64,000 bases of DNA from assembly GCA_026874595.1 (NCBI GenBank), contig CM049317.1:73848618-73912617 (forward strand), read 5' to 3'. The notes under the pieces are model-generated. The model saw only the letters and a program-made list of their open reading frames with translations. It made no database searches and was not told the origin of the DNA. The DNA is from Sipunculus nudus. Its lineage: Eukaryota; Annelida; Sipuncula; Golfingiida; Sipunculidae. Position numbers and translations under genes: made by a program. Shown here piece after piece: positions 3,384 to 37,400 of the stretch (position 1 is its first letter; each line of letters starts with the position of its first letter).

Positions 3384-3488
3384 TCAGAATTTCATCTTCT
3401 TCTTCTTCTTCATCACCTTCTGTTCCTGTTTATCCTCCTCATCGGCCAGTCGTCTCTCTAGCGCCTGCCTCCGCAGCAGTTCTGTGTC
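3384..3488 (-). CDS. NHEJ1: NHEJ1 exon 7 (residues 313-346), Ku-binding-type C-terminus
   Basis: The acceptor is TTTTGTTTGTAG and the stop TGA is at 3384-3386. It encodes a charged helix (ELLRRQALERRLADEEDKQE) and ends KVMKKKKKMKF. Human XLF likewise ends with a basic cluster followed by Phe near the C-terminus, the Ku80-contacting X-KBM. The poly-Lys run is encoded by an (AAG)n tract, which could vary in length. Confidence 0.92.
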   Translation of the reverse strand, partial: DTELLRRQALERRLADEEDKQEQKVMKKKKKMKF

Positions 3489-8900: not shown

Positions 8901-11900
8901 GTCATTATCTGCCCACACACCAAAAATCAGGCCAATATCTGCAGGCATTGCGAAAAAAAGTCCGTACATGTGTATTTGTCATGAAAATTTCTATTTTTCA
9001 TGAAATTTTCTAAGTTTAGGAGCTGTAAAACGGTTAAAAGTAGGTCAACAGGGACAAAACGCGAACTCGATCTGTAACTGGTCATTATCTGCCCATACAC
9101 CAAAAATCAGGCCAATATCTGCAGGCATTGCGAAATAAAGTCCGTACATGTGTATTTGTCATGAAAATTTCTATTTTTCATGAAATTTTCCAAGTTTAGG
9201 AGCCGTAAAACGGTCAAAAGACGGTCAACCAGGACGAAACGAGAACTCGATCTGTAACTGGTCATTATATCTGCATACACACCAAAAATCAGGCCAATAT
9301 CTGCAAGCATTGCGAAAAAAGTCCGTACATGTGTATTTGGCATGAAAATTTCTATTTTTCATGAAATTTTCTAAGTTAAGGAGCCGTAAAATGGTCAAAA
9401 GTAGGTCAACCGGGGCGAAACGCGAACTCGATCTGTAACTGGTCATTATCTGCCCACACACCAAAAATCAGGCCAATATCTGCAGGCATTGCGAAATAAA
9501 GTCCGTACATGTGTATTTGTCATGATAATTTCTATTTTTCATGAAATTTTCTAAGTTTAGGAGCCGTAAAATGGTCAAAAGTAGGTCAACTGGGACGAAA
9601 CACGAACTCGATCTGTAACTGGTCATTATCTGCCCACACACCAAAAATCAGGCCAATATCTGCAAGCATTGCGAATAAAAGTCCGTACATGTGTATTTGT
9701 CATGAAAATTTCTATTTTTCATGAAATTTTCTAAGTTAAGGAGCAGTAAAACGGTCAAAAGTAGGGCCAACCGGTATGAAACGCGAACTCAATCTGTAAC
9801 TGGTCATTATCTGCCACCACACCAAAATCAGGCCAATATCTGCAGGCATTGCGAAAAAAAGTCCGTACATGTGTATTTGTCATGAAAATTTCTATTTTTC
9901 ATGAAATTTTCTAAGTTTAGGAGCTGTAAAACGGTCAAAAGAGGGTCAACCAGGACGAAAAGCGAACATCCGTCTGCAACTGGTCATTATCTGCATACAC
10001 AACAAAATTCAGGCCAATATCTGCAAGCATTGCAAAAAAAAGTCCGTACATGTGTATTTGTCATGAAAATTTCTATTTTTCATGAAATTTTCTAAGTTAA
10101 GGAGCCGTAAAACGGTCAAAATAGGTCAAACTGGACGAAACGCAAACTCGATCTGTAACTGGTCATTATCTGCCCACACACCAAAAATCAGGCCAATATC
10201 TGCAGGCATTGCGAAAAAAAGTCCGTACATGTGTATTTGTCATGAAAATTTCTATTTTTCATGAAATTTTCTAAGTTTAGGAGCTGTAAAACGGTCAAAA
10301 GTAGGTCAACAGGGACAAAACGCGAACTCGATCTGTAACTGGTCATTATCTGCCCATACACCAAAAATCAGGCCAATATCTGCAGGCATTGCGAAATAAA
10401 GTCCGTACATGTGTATTTGTCATGAAAATTTCTATTTTTCATGAAATTTTCTAAGTTAAGGAGCCGTAAATCGGTCAAAAGTAGGTCAACTGGTATGAAA
10501 CGCGAACTCAATCTGTAACTGGTCATTATCTGCCCACACACCAAAAATCAGGCCAATATCTGCAGGCATTGCAAAATAAAGTCCGTACATGTGTATTTGT
10601 CATGAAAATTTCTATTTTTCATGAAATTTTCTAAGTTTAGGAGTCGTAAAACAGTCAAACAGTCAACTGGGACGAAACGCGAACTCGATCTGCAACTGGT
10701 CATTATCTGCATACACAACAAAAATCAGGCAAATATCTGCAAGCATTGCGAAAAAAAGTCTGTACATGTGTATTTGTCATGAAAATTTCTATTTTTCATG
10801 AAATTTTCTAAGTTAAGGAGCCGTAAAACGATCAAAAGTAGGTCAACCGGTACGAAACGCGAACTCGATCTGTAACTGGTCATTATCAGCATACAAACCA
10901 AAAATCAGGCCAATATCTGCAAGCTTTGCAAAAAAAAAGTCTGTACATGTGTTTTTGTCATGAAAATTTCTATTTTTCATGAAATTTTCTAAGTTAAGGA
11001 GCCATAAATTGGTCAAAAGTAGGTCAACAGGGACAAAACGCGAACTCGATCTGTAACTGGTCATTATCTGCCCACACACCAAAAATCAGGCCAATATCTG
11101 CAGGCATTGCGAAATAAAGTCCGTACATGTGTATTTGTCATGATAATTTCTATTTTTCATGAAATTTTCTAAGTTTAGGAGCCGTAAAATGGTCAAAAGT
11201 AGGTCAACTGGGACGAAACACGAACTCGATCTGTAACTGGTCATTATCTGCCCACACACCAAAAATCAGGCCAATATCTGCAAGCATTGCGAATAAAAGT
11301 CCGTACATGTGTATTTGTCATGAAAATTTCTATTTTTCATGAAATTTTCTAAGTTAAGGAGCAGTAAAACGGTCAAAAGTAGGGCCAACCGGTATGAAAC
11401 GCGAACTCAATCTGTAACTGGTCATTATCTGCCACCACACCAAAATCAGGCCAATATCTGCAGGCATTGCGAAAAAAAGTCCGTACATGTGTATTTGTCA
11501 TGAAAATTTCTATTTTTCATGAAATTTTCTAAGTTTAGGAGCTGTAAAACGGTCAAAAGAGGGTCAACCAGGACGAAAAGCGAACATCCGTCTGCAACTG
11601 GTCATTATCTGCATACACAACAAAATTCAGGCCAATATCTGCAAGCATTGCAAAAAAAAGTCCGTACATGTGTATTTGTCATGAAAATTTCTATTTTTCA
11701 TGAAATTTTCTAAGTTAAGGAGCCGTAAAACGGTCAAAATAGGTCAACCTGGACGAAACGCAAACTCGATCTGTAACTGGTCATTATCTGCCCACACACC
11801 AAAAATCAGGCCAATATCTGCAGGCATTGCGAAAAAAAGTCCGTACATGTGTATTTGTCATGAAAATTTCTATTTTTCATGAAATTTTCTAAGTTTAGGA

Positions 11901-14900
11901 GCTGTAAAACGGTCAAAAGTAGGTCAACAGGGACAAAACGCGAACTCGATCTGTAACTGGTCATTATCTGCCCATACACCAAAAATCAGGCCAATATCTG
12001 CAGGCATTGCGAAATAAAGTCCGTACATGTGTATTTGTCATGAAAATTTCTATTTTTCATGAAATTTTCTAAGTTAAGGAGCCGTAAATCGGTCAAAAGT
12101 AGGTCAACTGGTATGAAACGCGAACTCAATCTGTAACTGGTCATTATCTGCCCACACACCAAAAATCAGGCCAATATCTGCAGGCATTGCAAAATAAAGT
12201 CCGTACATGTGTATTTGTCATGAAAATTTCTATTTTTCATGAAATTTTCTAAGTTTAGGAGTCGTAAAACAGTCAAACGGTCAACTGGGACGAAACGCGA
12301 ACTCGATCTGCAACTGGTCATTATCTGCATACACAACAAAAATCAGGCAAATATCTGCAAGCATTGCGAAAAAAAGTCTGTACATGTGTATTTGTCATGA
12401 AAATTTCTATTTTTCATGAAATTTTCTAAGTTAAGGAGCCGTAAAACGATCAAAAGTAGGTCAACCGGTACGAAACGCGAACTCGATCTGTAACTGGTCA
12501 TTATCAGCATACAAACCAAAAATCAGGCCAATATCTGCAAGCTTTGCAAAAAAAAAGTCTGTACATGTGTTTTTGTCATGAAAATTTCTATTTTTCATGA
12601 AATTTTCTAAGTTAAGGAGCCATAAATTGGTCAAAATAGGTCAACCCGGAGGAAACGCAAACTCGATCTGTAACTGGTCATTATCTGCCCACACACCAAA
12701 AATCAGGCCAATATCTGCAGGCATTGCGAAAAAAAGTCCGTACATGTGTATTTGTCATGAAAATTTCTATTTTTCATGAAATTTTCTAAGTTTAGGAGCT
12801 GTAAAACGGTCAAAAGTAGGTCAACAGGGACAAAACGCGAACTCGATCTGTAACTGGTCATTATCTGCCCATACACCAAAAATCAGGCCAATATCTGCAG
12901 GCATTGCGAAATAAATTCCGTACATGTGTATTTGTCATGAAAATTTCTATTTTTCATGAAATTTTCTAAGTTAAGGAGCCGTAAATCGGTCAAAAGTAGG
13001 TCAACTGGTATGAAACGCGAACTCAATCTGTAACTGGTCATTATCTGCCCACACACCAAAAATCAGGCCAATATCTGCAGGCATTGTAAAATAAAGTCCG
13101 TACATGTGTATTTGTCATGAAAATTTCTATTTTTCATGAAATTTTCTAAGTTTAGGAGTCGTAAAACAGTCAAACGGTCAACTGGGACGAAACGCGAACT
13201 CGATCTGCAACTGGTCATTATCTGCATACACAACAAAAATCAGGCAAATATCTGCAAGCATTGCGAAAAAAAGTCTGTACATGTGTATTTGTCATGAAAA
13301 TTTCTATTTTTCATGAAATTTTCTAAGTTAAGGAGCCGTAAAACGATCAAAAGTAGGTCAACCGGTACGAAACGCGAACTCGATCTGTAACTGGTCATTA
13401 TCTGCATACAAACCAAATTCAGGCCAATATCTGCAAGCTTTGCAAAAAAAAAGTCTGTACATGTGTTTATGTCATGAAAATTTCTATTTTTCATGAAATT
13501 TTCTAAGTTAAGGAGCCGTAAAACGGTCAAAAGTAGGTCAACCTGTACGAAACGCGAACTCGATCTGTAACTGGTCATTATCTGCCCACACACCAAAAAT
13601 CAGGCCAATATCTGCAGGCATTTCGAAAAAAAATCTGTACATGTGTATTTGTCATGAAAATTTCTATTTTTCATGAAATTTTCTAAGTTTAGGAGCCGTA
13701 AAACGGTCAAAAGACGGTCAACCGGGACGAAACGAGAACTCAATCTGTAACTGGTCATTATCTGCACACACACCAAAATTCAGGCCAATATATCCAGGCA
13801 TTGCGAAAAAAAATCCGTACATGTGTATTTGTCATGAAAATTTCTATTTTTCATGAAATTTTCTAAGTTTAGGAGCTGTAAAACGGTTAAAAGTAGGTCA
13901 ACAGGGACAAAACGCAAACTCGATCTGTAACTGGTCATTATCTGCCCATACACCAAAAATCAGGCCAATATCTGCAGGCATTGCGAAAAAAAGTCCGTAC
14001 ATGTGTATTTGTCATGAAAATTTCTATTTTTCATGAAATTTTCTAAGTTAAGGAGCCGTAAAACGGTCAAAAGACGGTCAACCAGGACGAAACGAGAACT
14101 CGATCTGTAACTGGTCATTATCTGCATACACACCAAAAATCAGGCCAATATCTGCAAGCATTGCAAAAAAAGTCCGTACATGTGTATTTGTCATGAAAAT
14201 TTCTATTTTTCATGAAATTTTCTAAGTTAAGGAGCTGTAAAATGGTCAAAAGTAGGTCAACAGGGACAAAACGCGAACTCGATCTGTAACTGGTCATTAT
14301 CTGCCCACACACCAAAAATCAGGCCAATATCTGCAGGCATTGCGAAAAAAAGTCCGTACATGTGTATTTGTCATGAAAATTTCTATTTTCATGAAATTTT
14401 CTAAGTTTAGGAGCCGTAAAACGGTCAAAAGTAGGTCAACTGGGACGAAACACAAACTCGATCTGTAACTGGTCATTATCTGCCCACACACCAAAAATCA
14501 GGCCAATATCTGCAAGCATTGCGAAAAAAAGTCCGTACATGTGTATTTGTCATGAAAATTTCTATTTTTCATGAAATTTTCTAAGTTAAGGAGCCGTAAA
14601 ACGGTCAAAAGTAGGGCCAACCGGTATGAAATGCGAACTCAATCTGTAACTGGTCATTATTTGCCACCACACCAAAATCAGGCCAATATCTGCAGGCATT
14701 GCGAAAAAAAAGTCCGTACATGTGTATTTGTCATGAAAATTTCTATTTTTCATGAAATTTTCTAAGTTTAGGAGCCGTAAAACGGTCAAAAGAGGGTCAA
14801 CCAAGACGAAAAGCGAACTCGATCTGCAACTGGTCATTATCAGCATACACAACAAAATTCAGGCCAATATCTGCAAGCATTGCGAAAAAAAGTCCGTACA

Positions 14901-17900
14901 TGTGTATTTGTCATGAAAATTTCTTTTTTTCATGAAATTTTCTAAGTTTAGGAGCCGTAAAATGGTCAAAAGTAGGTCAACAGGGACAAAACGCGAACTC
15001 GATCTGTAACTGGTCATTATCTGCCCATACACCAAAAATCAGGCCAATATCTGCAGGCATTGCGAAATAAAGTCCGTACATGTGTATTTGTCATGAAAAT
15101 TTCTATTTTTCATGAAATTTTCTAAGTTTAGGAGCCGTAAAACGGTCAAAAGACGGTCAACTGGGACGAAACAAGAACTCGATCTGTAACTGGTCATTAT
15201 CTGCCCACACACCAAAAATCAGGCCAATATCTGCAAGCATTGCGAAAAAAAGTCTGTACATGTGTATTTGTCATGAAAATTTCTATTTTTCATGAAATTT
15301 TCTAAGTTAAGGAGCAGTAAAACGGTCAAAAGTAGGGCCAACCGGTATGAAACGCGAACTCAATCTGTAACTGGTCATTATCTGCCACCACACCAAAATC
15401 AGGCCAATATCTGCAGGCATTGCGAAAAAAAGTCCGTACATGTGTATTTGTCATGAAAATTTCTATTTTTCATGAAATTTTTCTAAGTTTAGGAGCTGTA
15501 AAACGGTCAAAAGAGGGTCAACCAGGACGAAAAGCGAACTCGATCTGCAACTGGTCATTATTTGCATACACAACAAAATTCAGGCCAATATCTGCAAGAA
15601 TTGCAAAAAAAAAGTCCGTACATGTGTATTTGTCATGAAAATTTCTATTTTTCATGAAATTTTCTAAGTTAAGGAGCCGTAAATCGGTCAAAAGGAGGTC
15701 AACTGGTATGAAACGCGAACTCAATCTGTAACTGGTCATTATCTGCCCACACACCAAAAATCAGGCCAATATCTGCAGGCATTGCGAAATAAAGTCCATA
15801 CATGTGTATTTGTCATGAAAATTTCTATTTTTCATGAAATTTTCTAAGTTTAGGAGTCGTAAAACAGTCAAAAGACGGTCAACTGGGACGAAACGTGAAC
15901 TCGATCTGCAACTGGTCATTATCTGCATACACAACAAAAATCAGGCCAATATCTGCAAGCATTGCGAAAAAAAGTCTGTACATGTGTATTTGTCATGAAA
16001 ATTTCTATTTTTCATGAAATTTTCTAAGTTAAGGAGCCGTAAAACGATCAAAAGTAGGTCAACCGGTACGAAACGCGAACTCGATCTGTAACTGGTCATT
16101 ATCTGCATACAAACCAAAAATCAGGCCAATATCTGCAAGCTTTGCAAAAAAAAAGTCTGTACATGTGTATTTGTCATGAAAATTTCTATTTTTCATGAAA
16201 TTTTCTAAGTTAAGGAGCCGTAAAATGGTCAAAGTAGGTCAACCGGGACAAAACGCAAACTCGATCTGTAACTGGTCATTATCTGCCAACACACCAAAAA
16301 TCAGGCCAATATCTGCAGGCACTGCGAAATAAAGTCCGTACATGTGTATTTGTCATGAAAATTTCTATTTTTCATGAAATTTTCTAAGTTTAGGAGCCGT
16401 AAAACGGTCAAAAGACGGTCAACCAGGACGAAACGAGAACTCGATCTGTAACTGGTCATTATCTGCATACACACCAAAAATCAGGCCAATATCTGCAAGC
16501 ATTGCAAAAAAAGTCCGTACATGTGTATTTGTCATGAAAATTTCTATTTTTCATGAAATTTTCTAAGTTAAGGAGCTGTAAAATGGTCAAAAGTAGGTCA
16601 ACAGGGACAAAACGCGAACTCGATCTGTAACTGGTCATTATCTGCCCACACACCAAAAATCAGGCCAATTTCTGCAGGCATTGCGAAAAAAAGTCCGTAC
16701 ATGTGTATTTGTCATGAAAATTTCTATTTTCATGAAATTTTCTAAGTTTAGGAGCCGTAAAACGGTCAAAAGTAGGTCAACTGGGACGAAACACAAACTC
16801 TATCTGTAACTGGTCATTATCTGCCCACACACCAAAAATCAGGCCAATATCTGCAAGCATTGCGAAAAAAAAGTCCGTACATGTGTATTTGTCATGAAAA
16901 TTTCTATTTTTCATGAAATTTTCTAAGTTAAGGAGCAGTAAAACGGTCAAAAGTAGGGCCAACCGGTATGAAATGCGAACTCAATCTGTAACTGGTCATT
17001 ATCTGCCACCACACCAAAATCAGGCCAATATCTGCAGGCATTGCGAAAAAAAGTCCGTACATGTGTATTTGTCATGAAAATTTCTATTTTTCATGAAATT
17101 TTCTAAGTTTAGGAGCCGTAAAACGGTCAAAAGAGGGTCAACCAGGACGAAAAGCGAACTCGATCTGCAACTGGTCATTATCAGCATACACAACAATATT
17201 CAGGCCAATATCTGCAAGCATTGCGAAAAAAAGTCCGTACATGTGTATTTGTCATGAAAATTTCTATTTTTCATGAAATTTTCTAAGTTTAGGAGCCGTA
17301 AAATGGTCAAAAGTAGGTCAACAGGGACAAAACGCGAACTCGATCTGTAACTGGTCATTATCTGCCCACACACCAAAAATCAGGCCAATATCTGCAAGCA
17401 TTGCGAAAAAAAGTCCGTACATGTGTATTTGTCATGAAAATTTCTATTTTTCATGAAATTTTCTAAGTTAAGGAGCAGTAAAACGGTCAAAAGTAGGGCC
17501 AACCGGTATGAAACGCGAACTCAATCTGTAACTGGTCATTATCTGCCACCACACCAAAATCAGGCCAATATCTGCAGGCATTGCGAAAAAAAGTCCGTAC
17601 ATGTGTATTTGTCATGAAAATTTCTATTTTTCATGAAATTTTCTAAGTTTAGGAGCTGTAAAACGGTCAAAAGAGGGTCAACCAGGACGAAAAGCGAACT
17701 CGATCTGCAACTGGTCATTATTTGCATACACAACAAAATTCAGGCCAATATCTGCAAGCATTGCAAAAAAAAGTCCGTACATGTGTATTTGTCATGAAAA
17801 TTTCTATTTTTCATGAAATTTTCTAAGTTAAGGAGCCGTAAAACGGTCAAAATAGGTCAACCTGGACAAAACTCGAACTCGATCTGTAACTGGTCATTAT

Positions 17901-20900
17901 CTGCCCACACACCAAAAATCAGGCCAATATCTGCAGGCATTGCGCAAAAAAGTCCGTACATGTGTATTTGTCATGAAAATTTCTATTTTTCATGAAATTT
18001 TCTAAGTTAAGGAGCCGTAAATCGGTCAAAAGGAGGTCAACTGGTATGAAACGCGAACTCAATCTGTAACTGGTCATTATCTGCCCACACACCAAAAATC
18101 AGGCCAATATCTGCAGGCATTGCGAAATAAAGTCCATACATGTGTATTTGTCATGAAAATTTCTATTTTTCATGAAATTTTCTAAGTTTAGGAGTCGTAA
18201 AACAGTCAAAAGACGGTCAACTGGGACGAAACGTGAACTCGATCTGCAACTGGTCATTATCTGCATACACAACAAAAATCAGGCCAATATCTGCAAGCAT
18301 TGCGAAAAAAAGTCTGTACATGTGTATTTGTCATGAAAATTTCTATTTTTCATGAAATTTTCTAAGTTAAGGAGCCGTAAAACGATCAAAAGTAGGTCAA
18401 CCGGTACGAAACGCGAACTCGATCTGTAACTGGTCATTATCTGCATACAAACCAAAAATCAGGCCAATATCTGCAAGCTTTGCAAAAAAAAAGTCTGTAC
18501 ATGTGTATTTGTCATGAAAATTTCTATTTTTCATGAAATTTTCTAAGTTAAGGAGCCGTAAAATGGTCAAAGTAGGTCAACCGGGACAAAACGCAAACTC
18601 GATCTGTAACTGGTCATTATCTGCCCACACACCAAAAATCAGGCCAATATCTGCAGGCACTGCGAAATAAAGTCCGTACATGTGTATTTGTCATGAAAAT
18701 TTCTATTATTCATGAAATTTTCTAAGTTTAGGAGCCGTAAAACGGTCAAAAGACGGTCAACCAAGACGAAAAGCGAAATCAATCTGCAACCGGTCATTAT
18801 CTGCATACACACCAAAAATCAGGCCAATATCTGCAAGCATTGCGAAAAAAAATCTGTACATGTGTATTTGTCATGAAAATTTCTATTTTTCATGAAATTT
18901 TCTAAGTTAAGGAGCCGTAAAACGGTCAAAAGTAGGTCAACCGGTACGAAACGTGAACTCGATCTGTAACTGGTCATTATCTGCCCACACACCAAAAATC
19001 AGGCCAATATCTGCAGGCATTTCGAAAAAAAATCTGTACATGTGTATTTGTCATGAAAATTTCTATTTTTCATGAAATTTTCTAAGTTAAGGAGCCGTAA
19101 AACGGTCAAAAGACGGTCAACCAAGACGAAAAGCGAAATCAATCTGCAACCGGTCATTATCTGCATACACACCAAAAATCAGGCCAATATCTGCAAGCAT
19201 TGCGAAAAAAAAATCTGTACATGTGTATTTGTCATGAAAATTTCTATTTTTCATGAAATTTTCTAAGTTAAGGAGCCGTAAAACGGTCAAAAGTAGGTCA
19301 ACCGGTACGAAACGCGAACTCGATCTGTAACTGGTCATTATCTGCCCACACACCAAAAATCAGGCCAATATCTGCAGGCATTTCGAAAAAAAATCTGTAC
19401 ATGTGTATTTGTCATGAAAATTTCTATTTTTCATGAAATTTTCTAAGTTTAGGAGCCGTAAAACGGTCAAAAGACGGTCAACCAAGACGAAAAGCGAAAT
19501 CAATCTGCAACCGGTCATTATCTGCATACACACCAAAAATCAGGCCAATATCTGCAAGCATTGCGAAAAAAAATCTGTACATGTGTATTTGTCATGAAAA
19601 TTTCTATTTTTCATGAAATTTTCTAAGTTAAGGAGCAGTAAAACGGTCAAAAGTAGGTCAACCGGTACGAAACGCGAACTCGATCTGTAACTGGTCATTA
19701 TCTGCCCACACACCAAAAATCAGGCCAATATCTGCAGGCATTTCGAAAAAAAAAATCTGTACATGTGTATTTGTCATGAAAATTTCTATTTTTCATGAAA
19801 TTTTCTAAGTTTAGGAGCCGTAAAACGGTCAAAAGACGGTCAACCGGGACGAAACGAGAAACTCGATCGGTAACTGGTCATTATCTGCCCACACACCAAA
19901 ATTCAGGCCAATATCTGCAGGCATTGCGAAAAAAAATCCGTACATGTGTATTTGTCATGAAAATTTCTATTTTTCATGAAATTTTCTAAGTTTAGGAGCT
20001 GTAAAACGGTCAAAAGTAGGTCAACAGGGACAAAACGCGAACTCGATCTGTAACTGGTCATTATCTGCCCATACACCAAAAATCAGGCCAATATCTGCAG
20101 GCATTGCAAAATAAAGTCCGTACATGTGTATTTGTCATGAAAATTTCTATTTTTCATGAAATTTTCTAAGTTTAGGAGCCGTAAAACGGTCAAAAGACGG
20201 TCAACCAGGACGAAACGAGAACTCGATCTGTAACTGGTCATTATCTGCATACACACCAAAAATCAGGCCAATATCTGCAAGCATTGCGAAAAAAGTCCGT
20301 ACATGTGTATTTGTCATGAAAATTTCTATTTTTCATGAAATTTTCTAAGTTTAGGAGCTGTAAAACGGTCAAAAATAGGTCAACCGGGACGAAACACGAA
20401 CTCGATCTGTAACTGGTCATTATCTGCCCACACACCAAAAATCAGACCAAAATCTGCAGGCATTGCGAAAAAAAGTCTGTACATGTGTATTTGTCATGAA
20501 AATTTCTATTTTTCATGAAATTTTCTAAGTTAAGGAGCCGTAAAATGGTCAAAAGTAGGTCAACTGGTACGAAACGCGAACTCGATCTGTAACTGGTCAT
20601 TATCTGCATACACACCAAAAATCAGGCCAATATCTGCAGGCATTGCGAAAAAAAGTCCGTACAACTGTTTGATTTCAGAAGGATGGAAGGAGGGAAGGAC
20701 GGAATGACGGACATGGGTAAAACTATATGCCCCTGCAACTTTGTGGCGGGGGGCATAAAAAACAACACTGTTATTTCACAACAGTCTGTTTCACGGGATG
20801 CGACCCGATCATCAGGTGAATGTGGTTAGAATGAAGCTAATGGCGTTGTTTGAAAAGCCGAGACTTTACGAGATTATGCTTAGTGCGATTGGGATGTGGG

Positions 20901-22413: not shown

Positions 22414-25400
22414 GTGTTTTTTTCCTATGCCCACATATTTGGTGCATACAACACAACATTCAAAATGTATTAATGTGTTTCATGAGCAAACAGCAGTTCT
22501 ACCGTCATGTATCAAACACTTTGATCTGGGAATAGCATCAAAACCACTCCCATACATTCAGTTTCCACTCCCTTATATATGTTCTGATTTCTTGTCAGAT
22601 ACTACTGGTCCTCACAAAATTGCAGTGAATATTTGTACACTTGAAGTGTCATGATTTCATGGTAAAGCCTTGCTGTGCTTGATGATGCTTCGTGTACATT
22701 ATTTGTAAACAGATGATGATGTAGCCATGTTGTTTTTTGTTAAAGACATATTAATATTCAAATTCTATTTGGAGTGAACTAAACTTCTCTGTATATTTCT
22801 TTCCAATCATTACATATTCAATATAACAATGTTATAATGTTATATATACAAGGAATAAAACATCCAGCAGGGCTCCACTATAGTTATGTTAATCTATACA
22901 AACACTATACACAGTGACCTCACAGCTGACATCAGACCTACAAGACACACTACAAAGTAAACTTCACATGACTTCCTGATGAAATTACTACTATTAACAA
23001 AAAGAGATTGTGTATGTATGTTTTTGGTTCCATGTCCATCATGGACAGGGAAGACTGAAGCTCTATACAGATGAAAGGTAAAAAAGACTATACAGTGGTT
23101 TCTTGCCAATTATCCTAAGAAATATAAAATTCCTGTCAATACAGAACACAGAATATCTCCACAGGGATATCCTGTTGTATAAAGCAGTACTACCTTGATC
23201 GTATAACATGTATAGCCACACCCTGTATACCTGTTGTCTATTGTGATGCTATCTACCTCAGGTGCCCTGCAATAACCAGGCATGTGGTACCTTGATGACT
23301 TCTCTGTATGTAAGAGATACATCTATTGTCTATAACAGTCCAGACATCCCACTTTTCCTACTGTTTCTTATATTTTTGCTCTCAGTCCTACTTTTCCTAC
23401 TTTTTCTTCAAAATACCTACTCTTTCCACATTTTGTTTGCTATGTGACATGAAATTTCAAAATGCTGTGAAGTTGTCCTTGTCGACTTTTAAGAAAACAA
23501 TTATGGGAATTTGGAGCACTATGTGATAAAAAAATTCAGGTTAGAAATGTTGCACCATACAAAAATTGTTTAATTATATTTTCAATAATATCACTTTTTT
23601 ATTTCATAAAGATTTATTAAGAATGACCATGAATTAATTTGTTAAGTGTGTAGTTTCTGTCCCACTTTTGTTCTACTTTTTCCTTCAGTTTTCCCACTGT
23701 GTTTTTTCTACTTTTTTTCTGTATTTTCAATCCTATTTTTGCCCTAATCATTAATAAGGGTTTGCTTGACATCCTTGTATAAAATTACTTTGAGTAGAGG
23801 TTCTGTGTAACCAGGCTTGTTTCACCATGATTTCTCTGTATATAAGAGATACACCTGTTGTCTGTAATGATATTACCTTGAGCAGGGGTTCTGTGTAACC
23901 AGGCATGTTTCACCATGATTTCTCTGTATATAAGAGATACACCTGTTGTCTATAATGATATTACCTTGAGCAGGGGTTCTGTGTAACCAGGCATGTTTCA
24001 CCATGATTTCTCTGTATATAAGAGATACACCTGTTGTCTATAATGATATAACCTTGAGCAGGGGTCCTGTGTAACCAGGCATGTTTCACTATGATTTCTC
24101 TGTATATAAGAGATACACCTGTTGTCTATAATGATATAACCTTGAGCAGGGGTTCTGTGTAACCAGGCATGTTTCACTATGATTTCTCTGTATATAAGAG
24201 ATACACCTGTTGTCTATAATGATATTACCTTGAGCAGGGGTTCTGTGTAACCAGGCATGTTTCACCATGATTTCTCTGTATATAAGAGATACACCTGTTG
24301 TCTATAATGATATAACCTTGAGCAGGGGTTCTGTGTAACCAGGCATGTTTCACCATGATTTCTCTGTATATAAGAGATACACCTGTTGTCTATAATGATA
24401 TAACCTTGAGCAGGGGTCCTGTGTAACCAGGCATGTTTAATCATGATTTCTCTGTATATAAGAGATACACCTGTTGTCTATAATGATATTACCTTGAGCA
24501 GGGGTTCTGTGTAACCAGGCATGTTTCACCATGATTTCTCTGTATATAAGAGATACACCTGTTGTCTATAATGATATAACCTTGAGCAGGGGTCCTGTGT
24601 AACCAGGCATGTTTAATCATGATTTCTCTGTATATAAGAGATACACCTGTTGTCTATAATGATATAACCTTGAGCAGGGGTTCTGTGTAACCAGGCATGT
24701 TTCACTATGATTTCTCTGTATATAAGAGATACACCTGTTGTCTATAATGATATTACCTTGAGCAGGGGTTCTGTGTAACCAGGCATGTTTCACTATGGTT
24801 TCTCTGTATATAAGAGATACACCTGTTGTCTATAATGATATTACCTTGAGCAGGGGTTCTGTGTAACCAGGCATGTTTCACATTGATTTCTCTGTATATA
24901 AGAGATACACCTGTTGTCTATAATGATATAACCTTGAGCAGGGGTTCTGTGTAACCAGGCATGTTTCACTATGATTTCTCTGTATATAAGAGATACACCT
25001 GTTGTCTATAATGATATTACCTTGAGCAGAGGTTCTGTGTAACCAGGCATGTTTCACTATGATTTCTCTGTATATAAGAGATACACCTGTTGTCTATAAT
25101 GATATTACCTTGAGCAGGGGTTCTGTGTAACCAGGCATGTTTCACATTGATTTCTCTGTATATAAGAGATACACCTGTTGTCTATAATGATATAACCTTG
25201 AGCAGGGGTTCTGTGTAACCAGGCATGTTTCACCATGATTTCTCTGTATATAAGAGATACACCTGTTGTCTATAATGATATAACCTTGAGCAGGGGTCCT
25301 GTGTAACCAGGCATGTTTAATCATGATTTCTCTGTATATAAGAGATACACCTGTTGTCTATAATGATATTACCTTGAGCAGGGGTTCTGTGTAACCAGGC

Positions 25401-28400
25401 ATGTTTCACCATGATTTCTCTGTATATAAGAGATACACCTGTTGTCTATAATGATATAACCTTGAGCAGGGGTCCTGTGTAACCAGGCATGTTTAATCAT
25501 GATTTCTCTGTATATAAGAGATACACCTGTTGTCTATAATGATATTACCTTGAGCAGGGGTTCTGTGTAACCAGGCATGTTTCACCATGATTTCTCTGTA
25601 TATAAGAGATACACCTGTTGTCTATAATGATATAACCTTGAGCAGGGGTCCTGTGTAACCAGGCATGTTTCACCATGATTTCTCTGTATATAAGAGATAC
25701 ACCTGTTGTCTATAATGATATTACCTTGAGCAGGGGTTCTGTGTAACCAGGCATGTTTCACTATGATTTCTCTGTATATAAGAGATACACCTGTTGTCTA
25801 TAATGATATTACCTTGAGCAGGGGTTCTGTGTAACCAGGCATGTTTCACTATGATTTCTCTGTATATAAGAGATACACCTGTTGTCTGTAATGATATTAC
25901 CTTGAGCAGGGGTTCTGTGTAACCAGGCATGTTTCACTATGATTTCTCTGTATATAAGAGATACACCTGTTGTCTATAATGATATTACCTTGAGCAGGGG
26001 TTCTGTGTAACCAGGCATGTTTCACTATGGTTTCTCTGTATATAAGAGATACACCTGTTGTCTATAATGATATTACCTTGAGCAGGGGTTCTGTGTAACC
26101 AGGCATGTTTCACCATGATTTCTCTGTATATAAGAGATACACCTGTTGTCTATAATGATATTACCTTGAGCAGGGGTTCTGTGTAACCAGGCATGTTTCA
26201 CTATGATTTCTCTGTATATAAGAGATACACCTGTTGTCTATAATGATATTACCTTGAGCAGGGGTTCTGTGTAACCAGGCATGTTTCACTATGGTTTCTC
26301 TGTATATAAGAGATACACCTGTTGTCTGTAATGATATTACCTTGAGCAGGGGTTCTGTGTAACCAGGCATGTTTCACCATGATTTCTCTGTATATAAGAG
26401 ATACACCTGTTGTCTATAATGATATTACCTTGAGCAGGGGTTCTGTGTAACCAGGCATGTTTCACTATGGTTTCTCTGTATATAAGAGATACACCTGTTG
26501 TCTATAATGATATTACCTTGAGCAGGGGTTCTGTGTAACCAGGCATGTTTCACTATGATTTCTCTGTATATAAGAGATACACCTGTTGTCTATAATGATA
26601 TTACCTTGAGCAGGGGTTCTGTGTAACCAGGCATGTTTCACTATGATTTCTCTGTATATAAGAGATACACCTGTTGTCTATAATGATATTACCTTGAGCA
26701 GGGGTTCTGTGTAACCAGGCATGTTTCACTATGGTTTCTCTGTATATAAGAGATACACCTGTTGTCTATAATGATATTACCTTGAGCAGGGGTTCTGTGT
26801 AACCAGGCATGTTTCACTATGGTTTCTCTGTATATAAGAGATACACCTGTTGTCTATAATGATATTACCTTGAGCAGGGGTTCTGTGTAACCAGGCATGT
26901 TTCACTATGATTTCTCTGTATATAAGAGATACACCTGTTGTCTATAATGATATTACCTTGAGCAGGGGTTCTGTGTAACCAGGCATGTTTCACTATGATT
27001 TCTCTGTATATAAGAGATACACCTGTTGTCTATAATGATATAACCTTGAGCAGGGGTTCTGTGTAACCAGGCATGTTTCACATTGATTTCTCTGTATATA
27101 AGAGATACACCTGTTGTCTATAATGATATTACCTTGAGCAGGGGTCCTGTGTAACCAGGCATCTTTCACATTGATTTCTCTGTATATAAGAGATACACCT
27201 GTTGTCTGTAATGATATTACCTTGAGCAGGGGTTCTGTGTAACCAGGCATGTTTCACATTGATTTCTCTGTATATAAGAGATACACCTGTTGTCTATAAT
27301 GATATAACCTTGAGCAGGGGTCCTGTGTAACCAGGCATCTTTCACATTGATTTCTCTGTATATAAGAGATACACCTGTTGTCTATAATGATATTACCTTG
27401 AGCAGGGGTCCTGTGTAACCAGGCATCTTTCACATTGATTTCTCTGTATATAAGAGATACACCTGTTGTCTATAATGATATTACCTTGAGCAGGGGTCCT
27501 GTGTAACCAGGCATCTTTCACATTGATTTCTCTGTATATAAGAGATACACCTGTTGTCTATAATGATATTACCTTGAGCAGAGGTTCTGTGTAACCAGGC
27601 ATGTTTCATCATGATTTCTCTGTATATAAGAGATACACCTGTTGTCTGTAATGATATAACCTTGAGCAGGGGTCCTGTGTAACCAGGCATCTTTCACATT
27701 GATTTCTCTGTATATAAGAGATACACCTGTTGTCTATAATGATATTACCTTGAGCAGGGGTCCTGTGTAACCAGGCATCTTTCACATTGATTTCTCTGTA
27801 TATAAGAGATACACCTGTTGTCTATAATGATATTACCTTGAGCAGGGGTCCTGTGTAACCAGGCATCTTTCACATTGATTTCTCTGTATATAAGAGATAC
27901 ACCTGTTGTCTATAATGATATTACCTTGAGCAGGGGTCCTGTGTAACCAGGCATCTTTCACATTGATTTCTCTGTATATAAGAGATACACCTGTTGTCTA
28001 TAATGATATAACCTTGAGCAGGGGTCCTGTGTAACCAGGCATGTTTCACCATGATTTCTCTGTATATAAGAGATACACCTGTTGTCTATAATGATATAAC
28101 CTTGAGCAGAGGTTCTGTGTAACCAGGCATGTTTCACCATGATTTCTCTGTATATAAGAGATACACCTGTTGTCTATAATGATATAACCTTGAGCAGGGG
28201 TCCTGTGTAACCAGGCATGTTTCACCATGATTTCTCTGTATATAAGAGATACACCTGTTGTCTATAATGATATAACCTTGAGCAGGGGTCCTGTGTAACC
28301 AGGCATGTTTCACTATGATTTCTCTGTATATAAGAGATACACCTGTTGTCTATAATGATATTACCTTGAGCAGAGGTTCTGTGTAACCAGGCATGTTTCA

Positions 28401-31400
28401 CATTGATTTCTCTGTATATAAGAGATACACCTGTTGTCTATAATGATATTACCTTGAGCAGGGGTTCTGTGTAACCAGGCATGTTTCACCATGATTTCTC
28501 TGTATATAAGAGATACACTTGTTGTCTATAATGATATAACCTTGAGCAGGGGTCCTGTGTAACCAGGCATGTTTCACTATGATTTCTCTGTATATAAGAG
28601 ATACACCTGTTGTCTATAATGATATTACCTTGAGCAGAGGTTCTGTGTAACCAGGCATGTTTCACATTGATTTCTCTGTATATAAGAGATACACCTGTTG
28701 TCTATAATGATATTACCTTGAGCAGGGGTTCTGTGTAACCAGGCATGTTTCACTATGATTTCTCTGTATATAAGAGATACACCTGTTGTCTGTAATGATA
28801 TTACCTTGAGCAGGGGTTCTGTGTAACCAGGCATGTTTCACTATGATTTCTCTGTATATAAGAGATACACCTGTTGTCTATAATGATATTACCTTGAGCA
28901 GGGGTTCTGTGTAACCAGGCATGTTTCACTATGATTTCTCTGTATATAAGAGATACACCTGTTGTCTGTAATGATATTACCTTGAGCAGGGGTTCTGTGT
29001 AACCAGGCATGTTTCACTATGATTTCTCTGTATATAAGAGATACACCTGTTGTCTATAATGATATTACCTTGAGCAGAGGTTCTGTGTAACCAGGCATGT
29101 TTCACATTGATTTCTCTGTATATAAGAGATACACCTGTTGTCTATAATGATATTACCTTGAGCAGGGGTCCTGTGTAACCAGGCATCTTTCACATTGATT
29201 TCTCTGTATATAAGAGATACACCTGTTGTCTGTAATGATATTACCTTGAGCAGGGGTTCTGTGTAACCAGGCATGTTTCACTATGATTTCTCTGTATATA
29301 AGAGATACACCTGTTGTCTATAATGATATTACCTTGAGCAGGGGTTCTGTGTAACCAGGCATGTTTCACTATGATTTCTCTGTATATAAGAGATACACCT
29401 GTTGTCTATAATGATATTACCTTGAGCAGGGGTTCTGTGTAACCAGGCATGTTTCACCATGATTTCTCTGTATATAAGAGATACACCTGTTGTCTATAAT
29501 GATATAACCTTGAGCAGGGGTCCTGTGTAACCAGGCATGTTTCACTATGATTTCTCTGTATATAAGAGATACACCTGTTGTCTATAATGATATTACCTTG
29601 AGCAGAGGTTCTGTGTAACCAGGCATGTTTCACATTGATTTCTCTGTATATAAGAGATACACCTGTTGTCTATAATGATATTACCTTGAGCAGGGGTTCT
29701 GTGTAACCAGGCATGTTTCACTATGATTTCTCTGTATATAAGAGATACACCTGTTGTCTATAATGATATAACCTTGAGCAGAGGTTCTGTGTAACCAGGC
29801 ATGTTTCACTATGATTTCTCTGTATATAAGAGATACACCTGTTGTCTATAATGATATAACCTTGAGCAGGGGTCCTGTGTAACCAGGCATGTTTCACTAT
29901 GATTTCTCTGTATATAAGAGATACACCTGTTGTCTGTAATGATATTACCTTGAGCAGGGGTTCTGTGTAACCAGGCATGTTTCATCATGATTTCTCTGTA
30001 TATAAGAGATACACCTGTTGTCTATAATGATATAACCTTGAGCAGGGGTTCTGTGTAACCAGGCATGTTTCACTATGATTTCTCTGTATATAAGAGATAC
30101 ACCTGTTGTCTATAATGATATTACCTTGAGCAGGGGTTCTGTGTAACCAGGCATGTTTCACCATGATTTCTCTGTATATAAGAGATACACCTGTTGTCTA
30201 TAATGATATTACCTTGAGCAGGGGTTCTGTGTAACCAGGCATGTTTCACTATGATTTCTCTGTATATAAGAGATACACCTGTTGTCTATAATGATATAAC
30301 CTTGAGCAGGGGTCCTGTGTAACCAGGCATGTTTCACCATGATTTCTCTGTATATAAGAGATACACCTGTTGTCTATAATGATATAACCTTGAGCAGAGG
30401 TTCTGTGTAACCAGGCATGTTTCACCATGATTTCTCTGTATATAAGAGATACACCTGTTGTCTGTAATGATATTACCTTGAGCAGGGGTTCTGTGTAACC
30501 AGGCATGTTTCATCATGATTTCTCTGTATATAAGAGATACACCTGTTGTCTATAATGATATAACCTTGAGCAGGGGTTCTGTGTAACCAGGCATGTTTCA
30601 CTATGATTTCTCTGTATATAAGAGATACACCTGTTGTCTATAATGATATTACCTTGAGCAGGGGTTCTGTGTAACCAGGCATGTTTCACCATGATTTCTC
30701 TGTATATAAGAGATACACCTGTTGTCTATAATGATATAACCTTGAGCAGGGGTTCTGTGTAACCAGGCATGTTTCACTATGATTTCTCTGTATATAAGAG
30801 ATACACCTGTTGTCTATAATGATATAACCTTGAGCAGGGGTCCTGTGTAACCAGGCATGTTTCACCATGATTTCTCTGTATATAAGAGATACACCTGTTG
30901 TCTATAATGATATAACCTTGAGCAGAGGTTCTGTGTAACCAGGCATGTTTCACCATGATTTCTCTGTATATAAGAGATACACCTGTTGTCTGTAATGATA
31001 TAACCTTGAGCAGAGGTTCTGTGTAACCAGGCATGTTTCACTATGATTTCTCTGTATATAAGAGATACACCTGTTGTCTATAATGATATAACCTTGAGCA
31101 GAGGTTCTGTGTAACCAGGCATGTTTCATCATGATTTCTCTATATATAAGAGATACACCTGTTGTCTATAATGATATAACCTTGAGCAGGGGTTCTGTGT
31201 AACCAGGCATGTTTCACCATGATTTCTCTGTATATAAGAGATACACCTGTTGTCTATAATGATATAACCTTGAGCAGGGGTCCTGTGTAACCAGGCATGT
31301 TTCACTATGATTTCTCTGTATATAAGAGATACACCTGTTGTCTATAATGATATAACCTTGAGCAGGGGTTCTGTGTAACCAGGCATGTTTCACCATGATT

Positions 31401-34400
31401 TCTCTGTATATAAGAGATACACCTGTTGTCTATAATGATATAACCTTGAGCAGGGGTCCTGTGTAACCAGGCATGTTTCACCATGATTTCTCTGTATATA
31501 AGAGATACACCTGTTGTCTGTAATGATATAACCTTGAGCAGAGGTTCTGTGTTACCAGGCATGTTTCACTATGATTTCTCTGTATATAAGAGATACACCT
31601 GTTGTCTGTAATGATATAACCTTGAGCAGAGGTTCTGTGTAACCAGGCATGTTTCACTATGATTTCTCTGTATATAAGAGATACACCTGTTGTCTATAAT
31701 GATATAACCTTGAGCAGGGGTCCTGTGTAACCAGGCATCTTTCACATTGATTTCTCTGTATATAAGAGATACACCTGTTGTCTGTAATGATATTACCTTG
31801 AGCAGGGGTTCTGTGTAACCAGGCATGTTTCACTATGATTTCTCTGTATATAAGAGATACACCTGTTGTCTATAATGATATAACCTTGAGCAGGGGTCCT
31901 GTGTAACCAGGCATCTTTCACATTGATTTCTCTGTATATAAGAGATACACCTGTTGTCTGTAATGATATTACCTTGAGCAGAGGTTCTGTGTAACCAGGC
32001 ATGTTTCACTATGATTTCTCTGTATATAAGAGATACACCTGTTGTCTATAATGATATAACCTTGAGCAGGGGTCCTGTGTAACCAGGCATCTTTCACATT
32101 GATTTCTCTGTATATAAGAGATACACCTGTTGTCTGTAATGATATAACCTTGAGCAGGGGTCCTGTGTAACCAGGCATGTTTCACCATAATTTCTCTGTA
32201 TATAAGAGATACACCTGTTGTCTGTAATGATATTACCTTGAGCAGGGGTTCTGTGTAACCAGGCATGTTTCACCATGATTTCTCTGTATATAAGAGATAC
32301 ACCTGTTGTCTATAATGATATAACCTTGAGCAGGGGTTCTGTGTAACCAGGCATGTTTCACCATAATTTCTCTGTATATAAGAGATACACCTGTTGTCTA
32401 TAATGATATTACCTTGAGCAGGGGTCCTGTGTAACCAGGCATGTTTCACTATGGTTTCTCTGTATATAAGAGATACACCTGTTGTCTATAATGATATAAC
32501 CTTGAGCAGGGGTTCTGTGTAACCAGGCATGTTTCACTATGATTTCTCTGTATATAAGAGATACACCTGTTGTCTATAATGATATTACCTTGAGCAGGGG
32601 TTCTGTGTAACCAGGCATGTTTCACTATGATTTCTCTGTATATAAGAGATACACCTGTTGTCTATAATGATATTACCTTGAGCAGAGGTTCTGTGTAACC
32701 AGGCATGTTTCACTATGATTTCTCTGTATATAAGAGATACACCTGTTGTCTATAATGATATTACCTTGAGCAGGGGTTCTGTGTAACCAGGCATGTTTCA
32801 CTATGATTTCTCTGTATATAAGAGATACACCTGTTGTCTGTAATGATATTACCTTGAGCAGGGGTTCTGTGTAACCAGGCATCTTTCACATTGATTTCTC
32901 TGTATATAAGAGATACACCTGTTGTCTATAATGATATTACCTTGAGCAGGGGTCCTGTGTAACCAGGCATGTTTCACCATGATTTCTCTGTATATAAGAG
33001 ATACACCTGTTGTCTATAATGATATTACCTTGAGCAGGGGTTCTGTGTAACCAGGCATGTTTCACTATGATTTCTCTGTATATAAGAGATACACCTGTTG
33101 TCTATAATGATATTACCTTGAGCAGGGGTTCTGTGTAACCAGGCATGTTTCACATTGATTTCTCTGTATATAAGAGATACACCTGTTGTCTATAATGATA
33201 TAACCTTGAGCAGAGGTTCTGTGTAACCAGGCATGTTTCACCATGATTTCTCTGTATATAAGAGATACACCTGTTGTCTATAATGATATTACCTTGAGCA
33301 GGGGTTCTGTGTAACCAGGCATGTTTCACTATGATTTCTCTGTATATAAGAGATACACCTGTTGTCTATAATGATATTACCTTGAGCAGGGGTTCTGTGT
33401 AACCAGGCATGTTTCACATTGATTTCTCTGTATATAAGAGATACACCTGTTGTCTATAATGATATTACCTTGAGCAGGGGTTCTGTGTAACCAGGCATGT
33501 TTCACATTGATTTCTCTGTATATAAGAGATACACCTGTTGTCTATAATGATATAACCTTGAGCAGGGGTTCTGTGTAACCAGGCATGTTTCACCATGATT
33601 TCTCTGTATATAAGAGATACACCTGTTGTCTGTAATGATATTACCTTGAGCAGGGGTCCTGTGTAACCAGGCATGTTTCACCATGATTTCTCTGTATATA
33701 AGAGATACACCTGTTGTCTATTATGATATTACCTTGAGCAGAGGTTCTGTGTAACCAGGCATGTTTCACCATAATTTCTCTGTATATAAGAGATACACCT
33801 GTTGTCTATAATGATATAACCTTGAGCAGAGGTTCTGTGTAACCAGGCATGTTTCACTATGATTTCTCTGTATATAAGAGATACACCTGTTGTCTATAAT
33901 GATATTACCTTGAGCAGGGGTCCTGTGTAACCAGGCATCTTTCACATTGATTTCTCTGTATATAAGAGATACACCTGTTGTCTATAATGATATTACCTTG
34001 AGCAGGGGTCCTGTGTAACCAGGCATGTTTCACCATGATTTCTCTGTATATAAGAGATACACCTGTTGTCTATAATGATATAACCTTGAGCAGGGGTCCT
34101 GTGTAACCAGGCATGTTTCACCATGATTTCTCTGTATATAAGAGATACACCTGTTGTCTATAATGATATTACCTTGAGCAGGGGTTCTGTGTAACCAGGC
34201 ATCTTTCACATTGATTTCTCTGTATATAAGAGATACACCTGTTGTCTATAATGATATTACCTTGAGCAGGGGTCCTGTGTAACCAGGCATGTTTCACCAT
34301 GATTTCTCTGTATATAAGAGATACACCTGTTCTCTATAATGATATTACCTTGAGCAGGGGTCCTGTGTAACCAGGCATCTTTCACATTGATTTCTCTGTA

Positions 34401-37400
34401 TATAAGAGATACACCTGTTGTCTATAATGATATAACCTTGAGCAGGGGTTCTGTGTAACCAGGCATGTTTCACTATGGTTTCTCTGTATATAAGAGATAC
34501 ACCTGTTGTCTATAATGATATTACCTTGAGCAGGGGTTCTGTGTAACCAGGCATGTTTCACTATGATTTCTCTGTATATAAGAGATACACCTGTTCTCTA
34601 TAATGATATTACCTTGAGCAGGGGTTCTGTGTAACCAGGCATGTTTCACTATGATTTCTCTGTATATAAGAGATACACCTGTTGTCTATAATGATATTAC
34701 CTTGAGCAGGGGTTCTGTGTAACCAGGCATGTTTCACATTGATTTCTCTGTATATAAGAGATACACCTGTTGTCTATAATGATATTACCTTGAGCAGGGG
34801 TTCTGTGTAACCAGGCATGTTTCACTATGATTTCTCTGTATATAAGAGATACACCTGTTCTCTATAATGATATTACCTTGAGCAGGGGTTCTGTGTAACC
34901 AGGCATGTTTCACCATAATTTCTCGGTACAGTTCCTGTCCTTGGTTCTGGAAGGCACTAAACCCTGGCACCTCAACTTGCTGCTCAAAACCCTGAAACAC
35001 AAGCAAATCAGAGTGTAAATTAACATATATATATATACTATATCATACATATATGAATACATATATAGCAAATTCCTGAAATAACTGGATACCACCATTC
35101 ATTCAGTACGGTAAAGCTCTCCCAGATTTATTTAGATGCACAGATTCTTACCAATACATAAACTATTCCTGAGATAATTGTGATTTCTATCCAAAACAGA
35201 CACATGAAATGATGCAACACAAAAATGATTGCTGGTGATGCCACTGTTTTGGGTACAAAATAAATATATGGAAAAGCAAAATTTCAGAAGGATGCATCAA
35301 ACCACTCCTGATATATGTGTTTTTCACCTAAAAAGATGTACAGGCTGATGACACACAGAGGAAATAACTGGATGCCACCATTCATTCAGTAAGGTAAAGC
35401 TCTCCCAGATTTATTTAGATGCACAGATTCTTACCAATTCAAAAACCATTCCTGAGATTATTGTGATTTTTATCCAAAACAGACACATGAATTGACGCAA
35501 CGCAAAAATGACTGCTGGTGGTGCCACTGTTTTGGGTACAAAATAAATCTACGGAAAAGCAAAATTTCAGAAGGATGCATCAAACCACTCCTGATATATG
35601 TGTTTTTCACCTAAAACATATGCACAGGCTGATGCCACACAGAGAAAAGGTTAGAGGTCAATGTAAAACAATACTGCACCAGTAAAAATTTGACCTCATA
35701 ATAATGTGAAGTTAAAACTAGATGTATCGGAACGACACGAATGCCCCCGCCTGGGGCAAATTAGAAACATTTGTTAAATTTTGTAAAATTTTTTAAGTTC
35801 AGGAAGTGTTGTATGGTCAAAAGTAGGTCAACAAGGGCAAAATGCAAACTCGATCTGTAAAGGGTCATTATCAAGCAACACACCAAAAATCAGGCCAGTA
35901 TCTGCAGGCATTGTGAAAAAAGTCCATATATGTGCATTTTTCATAAAAATTTCTGTCTTTCATGAAATTTTCTATGTTCAGGATCTGTCATATGGTGAAA
36001 AATAGGTTGACTGGGACCAAACGCGGACTCGATCTGTAAGTGGTCATTATGCGCCCACAGACCAAACATTAGGCCAGTATCTGTAAGCATTGCATTGGGA
36101 AACTAGAATATTAGCAAAAGTTTATAATCATTTATAAATTTAAATTGGAGAGGTATATACCATGTTTCATAACAATCCACCAAATGCTTCCTGAGAAATA
36201 AGCTCCGAAGTTTTTTTCTATACTAAGCTCTCTGACCTTGAAAAGTAGGTCAAGATCACCCATCTTTGAACTTGACCAAGATTTTGTAAATATAATGCAA
36301 TAGCACTGAAGAAATGAAGTTCCTGTGTTGAATACCTTTGGAGATATCCTGAACAAAAGGCCAAAATTGAAAAAATCCGATAAAATTTTATTAAAAAATC
36401 AGAAATTGCAGGTGGCGCCACCAAAATTGTGCAGCACATACAGACCATCAGTCCCAATGATCATAATAAGTTTTGTGAAAATCCACATGATGGTTCCTGA
36501 GATATAAACTTCTGGGTGTTTTTCTATAATCAGCTCTAAAATGTAGAAAAACGGGTCAAGGTCACCCATCTTTGAATTTGACCGAGATTTTATCGATATT
36601 CATCTTCACTGATGAAATAAAATTCCAACGGTGAATCCTTTTAGAGATATCCCGCTCACAAGGTAAAAGTTAACAGACACGGAACGGATGGACGGACGGA
36701 CAGACACCGGACAGACAGATGGACAGACGGACAGCTTGGGTGAGACAATAGCCCATCAGCCTATGAGCTGAGGGCTAAAAACGGCTGTACATGTGTATTT
36801 GTCATGAAAATTTCTATTTTTCATGAATTTTTCTAAGTTAAGGAGCCGTAAAACGGTCATAAGTAGGTCAACCGGGACGAAACGCGAACTCGATCTGTAA
36901 CTGGTCATTATCTGCCAACACACCAAAAATCAGGCCAATATCTGCAGGCATTGCAAAAAAAAGTCTGTACATGTGTATTTGTCATGAAAATTTCTATTTT
37001 TCATGAAATTTTCTAAGTTTAGGAGCCTTAAAACAGTCAAAAGTAGGTCTACCGGGACAAAACACGAACTCGATCTGTAACCAGTCATTATCTGCCAACA
37101 CACCAAAAATCAGGCCAATATCTGCAGGCATTGCAAAAAAAAGTCCGTACATGTGTATTTGTCATGAAAATTTCTATTTTTCATGAATTTTTCTAAGTTT
37201 AGGAGACGTAAAGCGGTCAAAAGTAGGTCAACCGGGACGAAACGCGAACTGGATCTGTAACTGGTCATTATCTGCCCACACACCAAAAATCAGGCCAATA
37301 TCTGCAGGCATTGCGAAAAAAAGTCCGTACAACTGTTTGATTTCGGAATGACCGAGGGTCAGAAGGACGGACATGGGTAAAACTATATGCCCCGGCCACT

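What the first reader, a model, noticed from the sequence alone, without database searches (positions are those of the whole stretch)
23783..34991. An 11-kb satellite made from an NHEJ1 splice donor
Each 88-bp unit contains, on the gene's strand, the last roughly 50 bp of NHEJ1 exon 5, its donor (CTCAAG|GTAATATC) and 41 bp of intron. The unit nearest the gene is the real exon end, shown by the phase-1 fit with exon 6. So a coding exon edge plus its donor has been amplified about 126-fold inside its own gene. The intron then begins with more than a hundred decoy donors, which could compete for U1, alter exon 5 length or slow splicing. I know of no described satellite of this origin; novelty is inference.
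Basis: partly seen in the sequence, partly recalled or inferred. Interest (0 to 1): 0.88.

Follow-up and report, generated by a model that had tools for sequence, protein, structure and literature searches.

The report
Exon-edge minisatellite in NHEJ1 gene

Summary
An 88-bp repeat fills 23784-34928: 126 full units, no indels, one strand. Each unit holds 47 nt of an NHEJ1/XLF coding exon end, its donor and 41 nt of intron; unit 1 is the real exon end (34877). The gene reads as six coding exons, 327 aa, with the only XLF-domain matches in the 1.43-Gb assembly. Each half of the unit has 126 matches in that genome, the number the window alone holds, so this is a single-locus minisatellite. It is old: a dispersed element interrupts its far edge within a unit and decayed units (79% identity) resume beyond. 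Twelve shared variant sites form 40 unit types, the mark of exchange. By prediction each of the 125 further donors stops or shifts the frame. Not in the finding given: the acceptor edge of the next exon, at the other end of the same intron, is also tandemly copied (three 65-bp units). Novelty is limited by the human IFI6 (6-16) minisatellite, which supplies several donors. Donor use, and whether exon or array came first, could not be tested.

The parts
52294..52488 (-). NHEJ1 coding exon 1 (from ATG)
   Evidence: PF09302
41634..41852 (-). NHEJ1 coding exon 2
   Evidence: PF09302
40162..40305 (-). NHEJ1 coding exon 3 (coiled coil, PF21928)
34877..34991 (-).
23784..34928 (-). 88-bp minisatellite, 126 full units plus a truncated one; each unit = exon end + donor + rest of 41 nt of intron
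23338..23783 (-). dispersed element (43 matches including itself, on 14 contigs, the others 65-82% identical) that interrupts a unit at the far edge; insertion inferred
23163..23337 (-). decayed array units beyond the element (84 of 106 ungapped columns identical for 23226-23337; a further, much weaker stretch to 23163)
7428..20663 (.). second array in the same intron: 180-bp repeat that occurs genome-wide (15,519 matches of a 32-bp piece)
4723..4917 (-). three 65-bp tandem copies of the acceptor edge of the next exon (alignments reach up to 28 nt into the exon, with gaps)
4479..4684 (-).
3384..3488 (-). NHEJ1 last coding exon, ends KKKKKMKF and stop

Best explanation
This is a locus-specific minisatellite born inside NHEJ1 when a segment spanning the end of a coding exon, its donor and 41 nt of intron was tandemly duplicated, probably at the short similarity TAC[C/A]GAGAAAT at both ends of the segment (inferred). 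Unequal exchange and conversion then expanded and shuffled it to 126 units (shuffling shown, mechanism inferred). The real exon end is unit 1 and shares variants with the array, so a coding exon edge sits inside a recombining array. The gene most likely tolerates it because the first donor, the one nearest the exon's own acceptor, is used by exon definition; the other 125 donors are unproductive and seldom used (inferred, no RNA data). No function of the array is shown.
For: Intact 327-aa frame over six exons with matching phases and GT-AG sites; Pfam XLF 1.1e-25 and XLF_CC 3.1e-09; human XLF 2e-19; no other XLF-domain match in the genome. Exon end and units differ only at shared variant sites. 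Unit confined to this locus: 126 genome matches = 126 window matches for each half. Old: the array stops at unit position 52, a dispersed element follows, and decayed units resume at unit position 57. Exchange: 40 unit types from 12 shared sites, 31 of 66 site pairs with all four combinations, 4 columns varying in one unit only; units up to 6 apart are alike beyond chance (0 of 1000 permutations). Copies look unconstrained: Tajima's D -0.03; 8 of 11 changes alter the protein against 109 of 135 possible ones.
Against: No transcript shows which donor is used. The age of the exon end relative to the array is not shown. Distance to the exon unit shows no trend along the array (Spearman -0.04, p 0.67), which weakens exchange with the exon; that claim rests on two rare variants clustered near it, noticed after the fact. 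The third decayed unit is weak on its own (nhmmer E 1.6; 1 of 500 shuffles as good).
Confidence: 0.72

Rival explanations
1. Array first: an intronic minisatellite that happened to carry a donor-like site recombined into the exon and replaced its original end, so the coding end is derived from the repeat.
For: The part of the exon that is repeat is not matched to human XLF (one search is a weak test); exon and unit resemble each other only from TAC onward; decayed units show that the repeat is old.
Against: It needs a chance fit of frame and phase; the only other phase-1 GT in the exon is very weak; no other copy of the unit was found in the genome; tandem copying of an exon edge is seen a second time at the other end of the intron.
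Confidence: 0.13
2. The array regulates NHEJ1: extra donors bind U1 and divert some transcripts into unproductive splicing, tuning the amount of XLF.
For: Donor-like sites are 18.2 per kb in the array against 0.5 per kb in the rest of the intron; 124 of 125 extra donors put a stop inside the lengthened exon and the other shifts the frame; in human IFI6 two downstream repeat units are said to serve as donors (PMC4526556 passage).
Against: Donors are not kept alike: 48 of 126 carry +3 T, which weakens the U1 fit from -6.6 to -4.1 kcal/mol; variation in the array looks neutral; the RNA fold at the exon end is ordinary (z -0.75, 48 of 200 shuffles as good).
Confidence: 0.1
3. Assembly artefact: a short repeat blown up by the assembler.
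For: No reads could be inspected; unit length is perfectly constant.
Against: 40 unit types, and only one run of 4 consecutive units that recurs; decay at the far edge with an interposed element; long arrays occur elsewhere in the assembly (1 of 20 sampled 10-kb stretches).
Confidence: 0.03

Closest known systems
Human 6-16/IFI6 minisatellite (Turri, Cuin and Porter 1995, NAR 23:1854; paper not held; title seen as a citation)
   Same: [quoted passage not shown] a passage of PMC4526556 says two downstream repeat units serve as donors and three mRNA species result.
   Different: Here 88-bp units, 126 copies and 11 kb; each unit holds coding exon, donor and intron; all extra donors are predicted to break the frame; use unknown. 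(From recall, not from a call: the IFI6 unit is 12 bp with some 26 copies.)
Single-locus minisatellites with interspersed variant units (PMC2363947, listing and start of abstract)
   Same: One locus, variant units interspersed along the array.
   Different: Here one end of the array is a coding exon end with its donor.
Human TERT intron 6 VNTR6-1 (PMC11830802, listing and start of abstract)
   Same: Long intronic tandem repeat in a gene whose splicing is under genetic study.
   Different: What I saw does not say that the unit derives from an exon edge; here no splicing data exist.
Intron gain by tandem genomic duplication (PMC4974935, listing and start of abstract)
   Same: Tandem duplication inside a gene bearing on splice sites.
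   Different: Here an existing intron edge was multiplied; no new intron is shown.

Membership tests
NHEJ1/XLF gene | XLF N-terminal domain and coiled coil | tested here: met
   PF09302 1.1e-25 and PF21928 3.1e-09, both over the curated cut-off
NHEJ1/XLF gene | Intact frame with canonical splice sites | tested here: met
   328 codons with stop, GT-AG at all five introns
NHEJ1/XLF gene | Expressed and functional | not testable with these tools
   no RNA or protein data
Single-locus minisatellite | Tandem units of 15-100 bp (range as in the abstract of PMC3618361) at one locus | tested here: met
   88 bp, 126 units; no further match within 3 mismatches per 33-35 bp
Single-locus minisatellite | Copy-number variation between individuals | not testable with these tools
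   one assembly only
Genome-wide satellite DNA | Arrays at many loci | tested here: not met
   126 genome matches, as many as in the window, against 15,519 for the neighbouring 180-bp repeat
IFI6-type minisatellite providing splice donors | Donor-like site in each unit, contiguous with the real donor | tested here: met
   126 of 126 full units carry AAG|GT[A/T]ATATC
IFI6-type minisatellite providing splice donors | Several units used as donors in mRNA | not testable with these tools
   needs RNA; predicted products are out of frame or stopped in 125 of 125 cases

The most novel reading that the evidence does not exclude
A coding exon edge and its splice donor live as the terminal unit of a recombining array, so exchange with the array can rewrite the end of an exon of a DNA end-joining gene (126 of 126 units keep frame length, 125 of 126 have no stop in the exon frame) while the array stays tied to the exon; and such exon-edge arrays are a recurrent, overlooked class, since both edges of this one intron show it.
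Probability: 0.33. Interest if true: 0.78.

Novelty: new variant of a known kind. Interest (0 to 1): 0.62.

Why it matters
It is a natural test of how the splicing machinery picks one donor among 126 near-identical ones spaced 88 nt apart, with only the first predicted to be productive. It puts a coding sequence at the edge of an exchanging array, so concerted evolution of a coding exon can be followed. And it suggests a class that repeat masking would hide: arrays whose unit spans an exon edge.

Tried and rejected
Rejected: insertion of a satellite present elsewhere (no further matches); a known RNA family in the window (0 matches at gathering threshold); an unusual RNA fold at the exon end; another phase-1 donor of comparable strength in the exon; higher-order blocks (one run of 4 recurring units, at lag 10). 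Clustering of variable columns (7 of 16 in 12 bp, p 0.03 in 20,000 simulations) is weak, since neighbouring columns may be one event.

Led nowhere: a direct match of the exon region to human XLF (none up to E 10; weak, as it also missed the coiled coil aligned). Paper searches, seen as listings: (25 of 56 papers listed; 10 of 10; 20 of 50; 20 of 44; 12 of 39): I saw no title or abstract start with an exon-edge unit of this kind; unlisted papers were not seen. The IFI6 precedent came from recall and was then looked up (20 of 266 listed). Searches (10 of 44; 8 of 17) were seen as listings. PMC12783039, PMC3549977, PMC5628181, PMC3618361 and PMC2915984 were seen as passages.

Full report
What is there. 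TRF gives one array, 23784-34928, period 88, 126.6 copies, 96% matches, no indels. A wraparound alignment on the gene strand cuts it into 126 full units, a truncated unit at the far edge and 5 further nt at the exon side. Written from the exon side, a unit is 47 nt of exon (AGAAAT...CTCAAG) and 41 nt of intron that begin GTAATATC or GTTATATC and end TATATACAG. The units point the same way. The unit nearest the gene is the end of a 115-nt exon, 34877-34991.

The gene. Joining six exons gives one frame of 327 aa with GT-AG sites at all five introns (boundaries chosen by eye). It scores 1.1e-25 with the Pfam XLF domain and 3.1e-09 with the XLF coiled coil, and matches human XLF structures at 2e-19 over residues 12-186. 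The two matches of the XLF domain found in the 1.43-Gb assembly are two exons of this gene. The array exon encodes residues after 186 and is not matched to human XLF (a weak test, gave nothing up to E 10). The intron with the array is 30,192 bp; 11,093 bp are this array and 13,236 bp a 180-bp repeat.

One locus. A 33-bp piece of the exon half and a 35-bp piece of the intron half each have 126 matches in the genome at up to 3 mismatches, none on the other strand. The listings are cut short, and the places listed are here; the window alone holds 126 of each, so by count none is left over. The tool warns that counts of repeats can be lower bounds, though it calls these counts whole. By contrast a 32-bp piece of the neighbouring 180-bp repeat has 15,519 matches at up to 2 mismatches. 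The decayed edge units match only themselves. More diverged copies elsewhere could be missed.

Age and far edge. The array breaks off at unit position 52. Then come 446 bp that resemble sequences on 14 contigs (43 matches including itself, some of them two pieces of one copy; the others 65-82% identical): a dispersed element. Then the repeat resumes at unit position 57, decayed: 84 of 106 ungapped columns identical, nhmmer E 1.5e-12. One alignment of score 57 runs on into a further unit, against a best of 16.3 in 300 shuffles; taken alone that further unit is weak (nhmmer E 1.6; 1 of 500 shuffles as good). I infer that the element landed inside a unit of an array that already had several, and that the units cut off stopped being homogenised. 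No clock was applied.

Turnover. The 126 units fall in 40 types built from 16 variable columns, 12 of them with a second letter in three or more units; 31 of 66 pairs of those show all four combinations; four columns vary in one unit only. Units up to 6 apart are more alike than in permuted order (mean 2.77 against 3.11 differences, 0 of 1000 as low). Tajima's D is -0.03. This is what exchange among unconstrained units would give. Ten variable columns lie in the exon half and six in the intron half; 8 of 11 changes in the exon half alter the protein against 109 of 135 possible single changes. One of 126 units has a stop in the exon frame.

The exon as unit 1. The exon unit carries T7, G10 and G64. 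G64 is in units 1, 4 and 7 only; T7 in units 1, 14, 30 and 32 only. Leaving the exon itself out, chance gives 0.002 for the two other G64 units being among the first seven and 0.014 for the three other T7 units being among the first 32 (my arithmetic; one search gives 0.0001 and 0.0036 with the exon counted; both were noticed after the fact). Against this, distance to the exon unit does not change along the array (Spearman -0.04, p 0.67). I read it as probable local exchange, not proof.

Splicing. A second donor-like site, CAG|GTGTATC, is in 125 of 126 units and scores -6.7. Sites within two mismatches of the recalled donor consensus number 202 in the array, 18.2 per kb, against 0.5 per kb in the rest of the intron and 2.1 per kb in 34992-52293. 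If the exon were lengthened to any of the 125 further donors and joined to the next exon, 124 give a stop within the lengthened exon and the first gives a frameshift with a stop right after. So only the first donor is predicted to be productive. That it is chosen because it lies nearest the exon's acceptor is inference from exon definition. The fold of the exon end is ordinary (z -0.75, 48 of 200 shuffles as good).

Birth. Exon and unit are alike from TACCGAGAAAT/TACAGAGAAAT onward and not before. Such a short similarity at both ends of the unit is what a duplication by misalignment would leave; this is inference. The opposite order, array first, is not excluded because no relatives could be searched, but it needs a chance fit of phase, and the only other phase-1 GT in the exon is very weak.

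A second case at the other end of the intron. Upstream of the next exon, 4723-4917, lie three 65-bp units that resemble the intron end plus the start of that exon, with gaps and up to 28 nt into it (local scores 27.5, 24.5 and 27.0 against best values of 15.0, 13.5 and 13.5 in 300 shuffles each; a stretch further out scored 20.5 against 21.0 and is not counted). A 38-bp piece of this unit has three matches in the genome, all here. An ungapped scan of the 12 ends of the six exons found copies of the array donor only; it also missed the 65-bp units, so it is not exhaustive.

How unusual. One of 20 sampled 10-kb stretches lay wholly in a 52-bp array, so long minisatellites are not rare in this genome. 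With very many exon edges some arrays should fall on one by chance; how many do is unknown. The precedent is human 6-16/IFI6, whose minisatellite provides several splice donors (title; use of two downstream units and three mRNAs in a passage of PMC4526556; the 1995 paper itself is not held). Our case is larger, spans coding exon, donor and intron, and has one donor that is predicted to be productive. I call it a new variant of a known kind.

Noticed in passing
4657-4917: Acceptor edge of the next NHEJ1 exon is tandemly copied in 65-bp units, the mirror image of the donor-edge array at the other end of the same intron.
   Followed up: yes
7428-20663 and 36787-38642: 180-bp repeat, 13.2 kb in the same intron and in smaller pieces in the previous intron; a 32-bp piece of it has 15,519 matches across the genome.
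   Followed up: partly
23338-23783: Dispersed element interposed in the far edge of the array; family not classified.
   Followed up: partly
35078-35648: Two tandem 283-bp copies just upstream of the array exon, in the previous intron.
   Followed up: no
36135-36555 and 37762-38182: Two very similar stretches in the previous intron (the same reading frames recur), perhaps a duplicated mobile element.
   Followed up: no
L007 1-10000: A sampled 10-kb stretch of another contig (C3) lies wholly in a 52-bp minisatellite, 193 copies at 91%.
   Followed up: no
array unit positions 6-17 (23784-34928): 7 of 16 variable columns fall in 12 bp near the exon-side junction (p 0.03), unexplained.
   Followed up: partly
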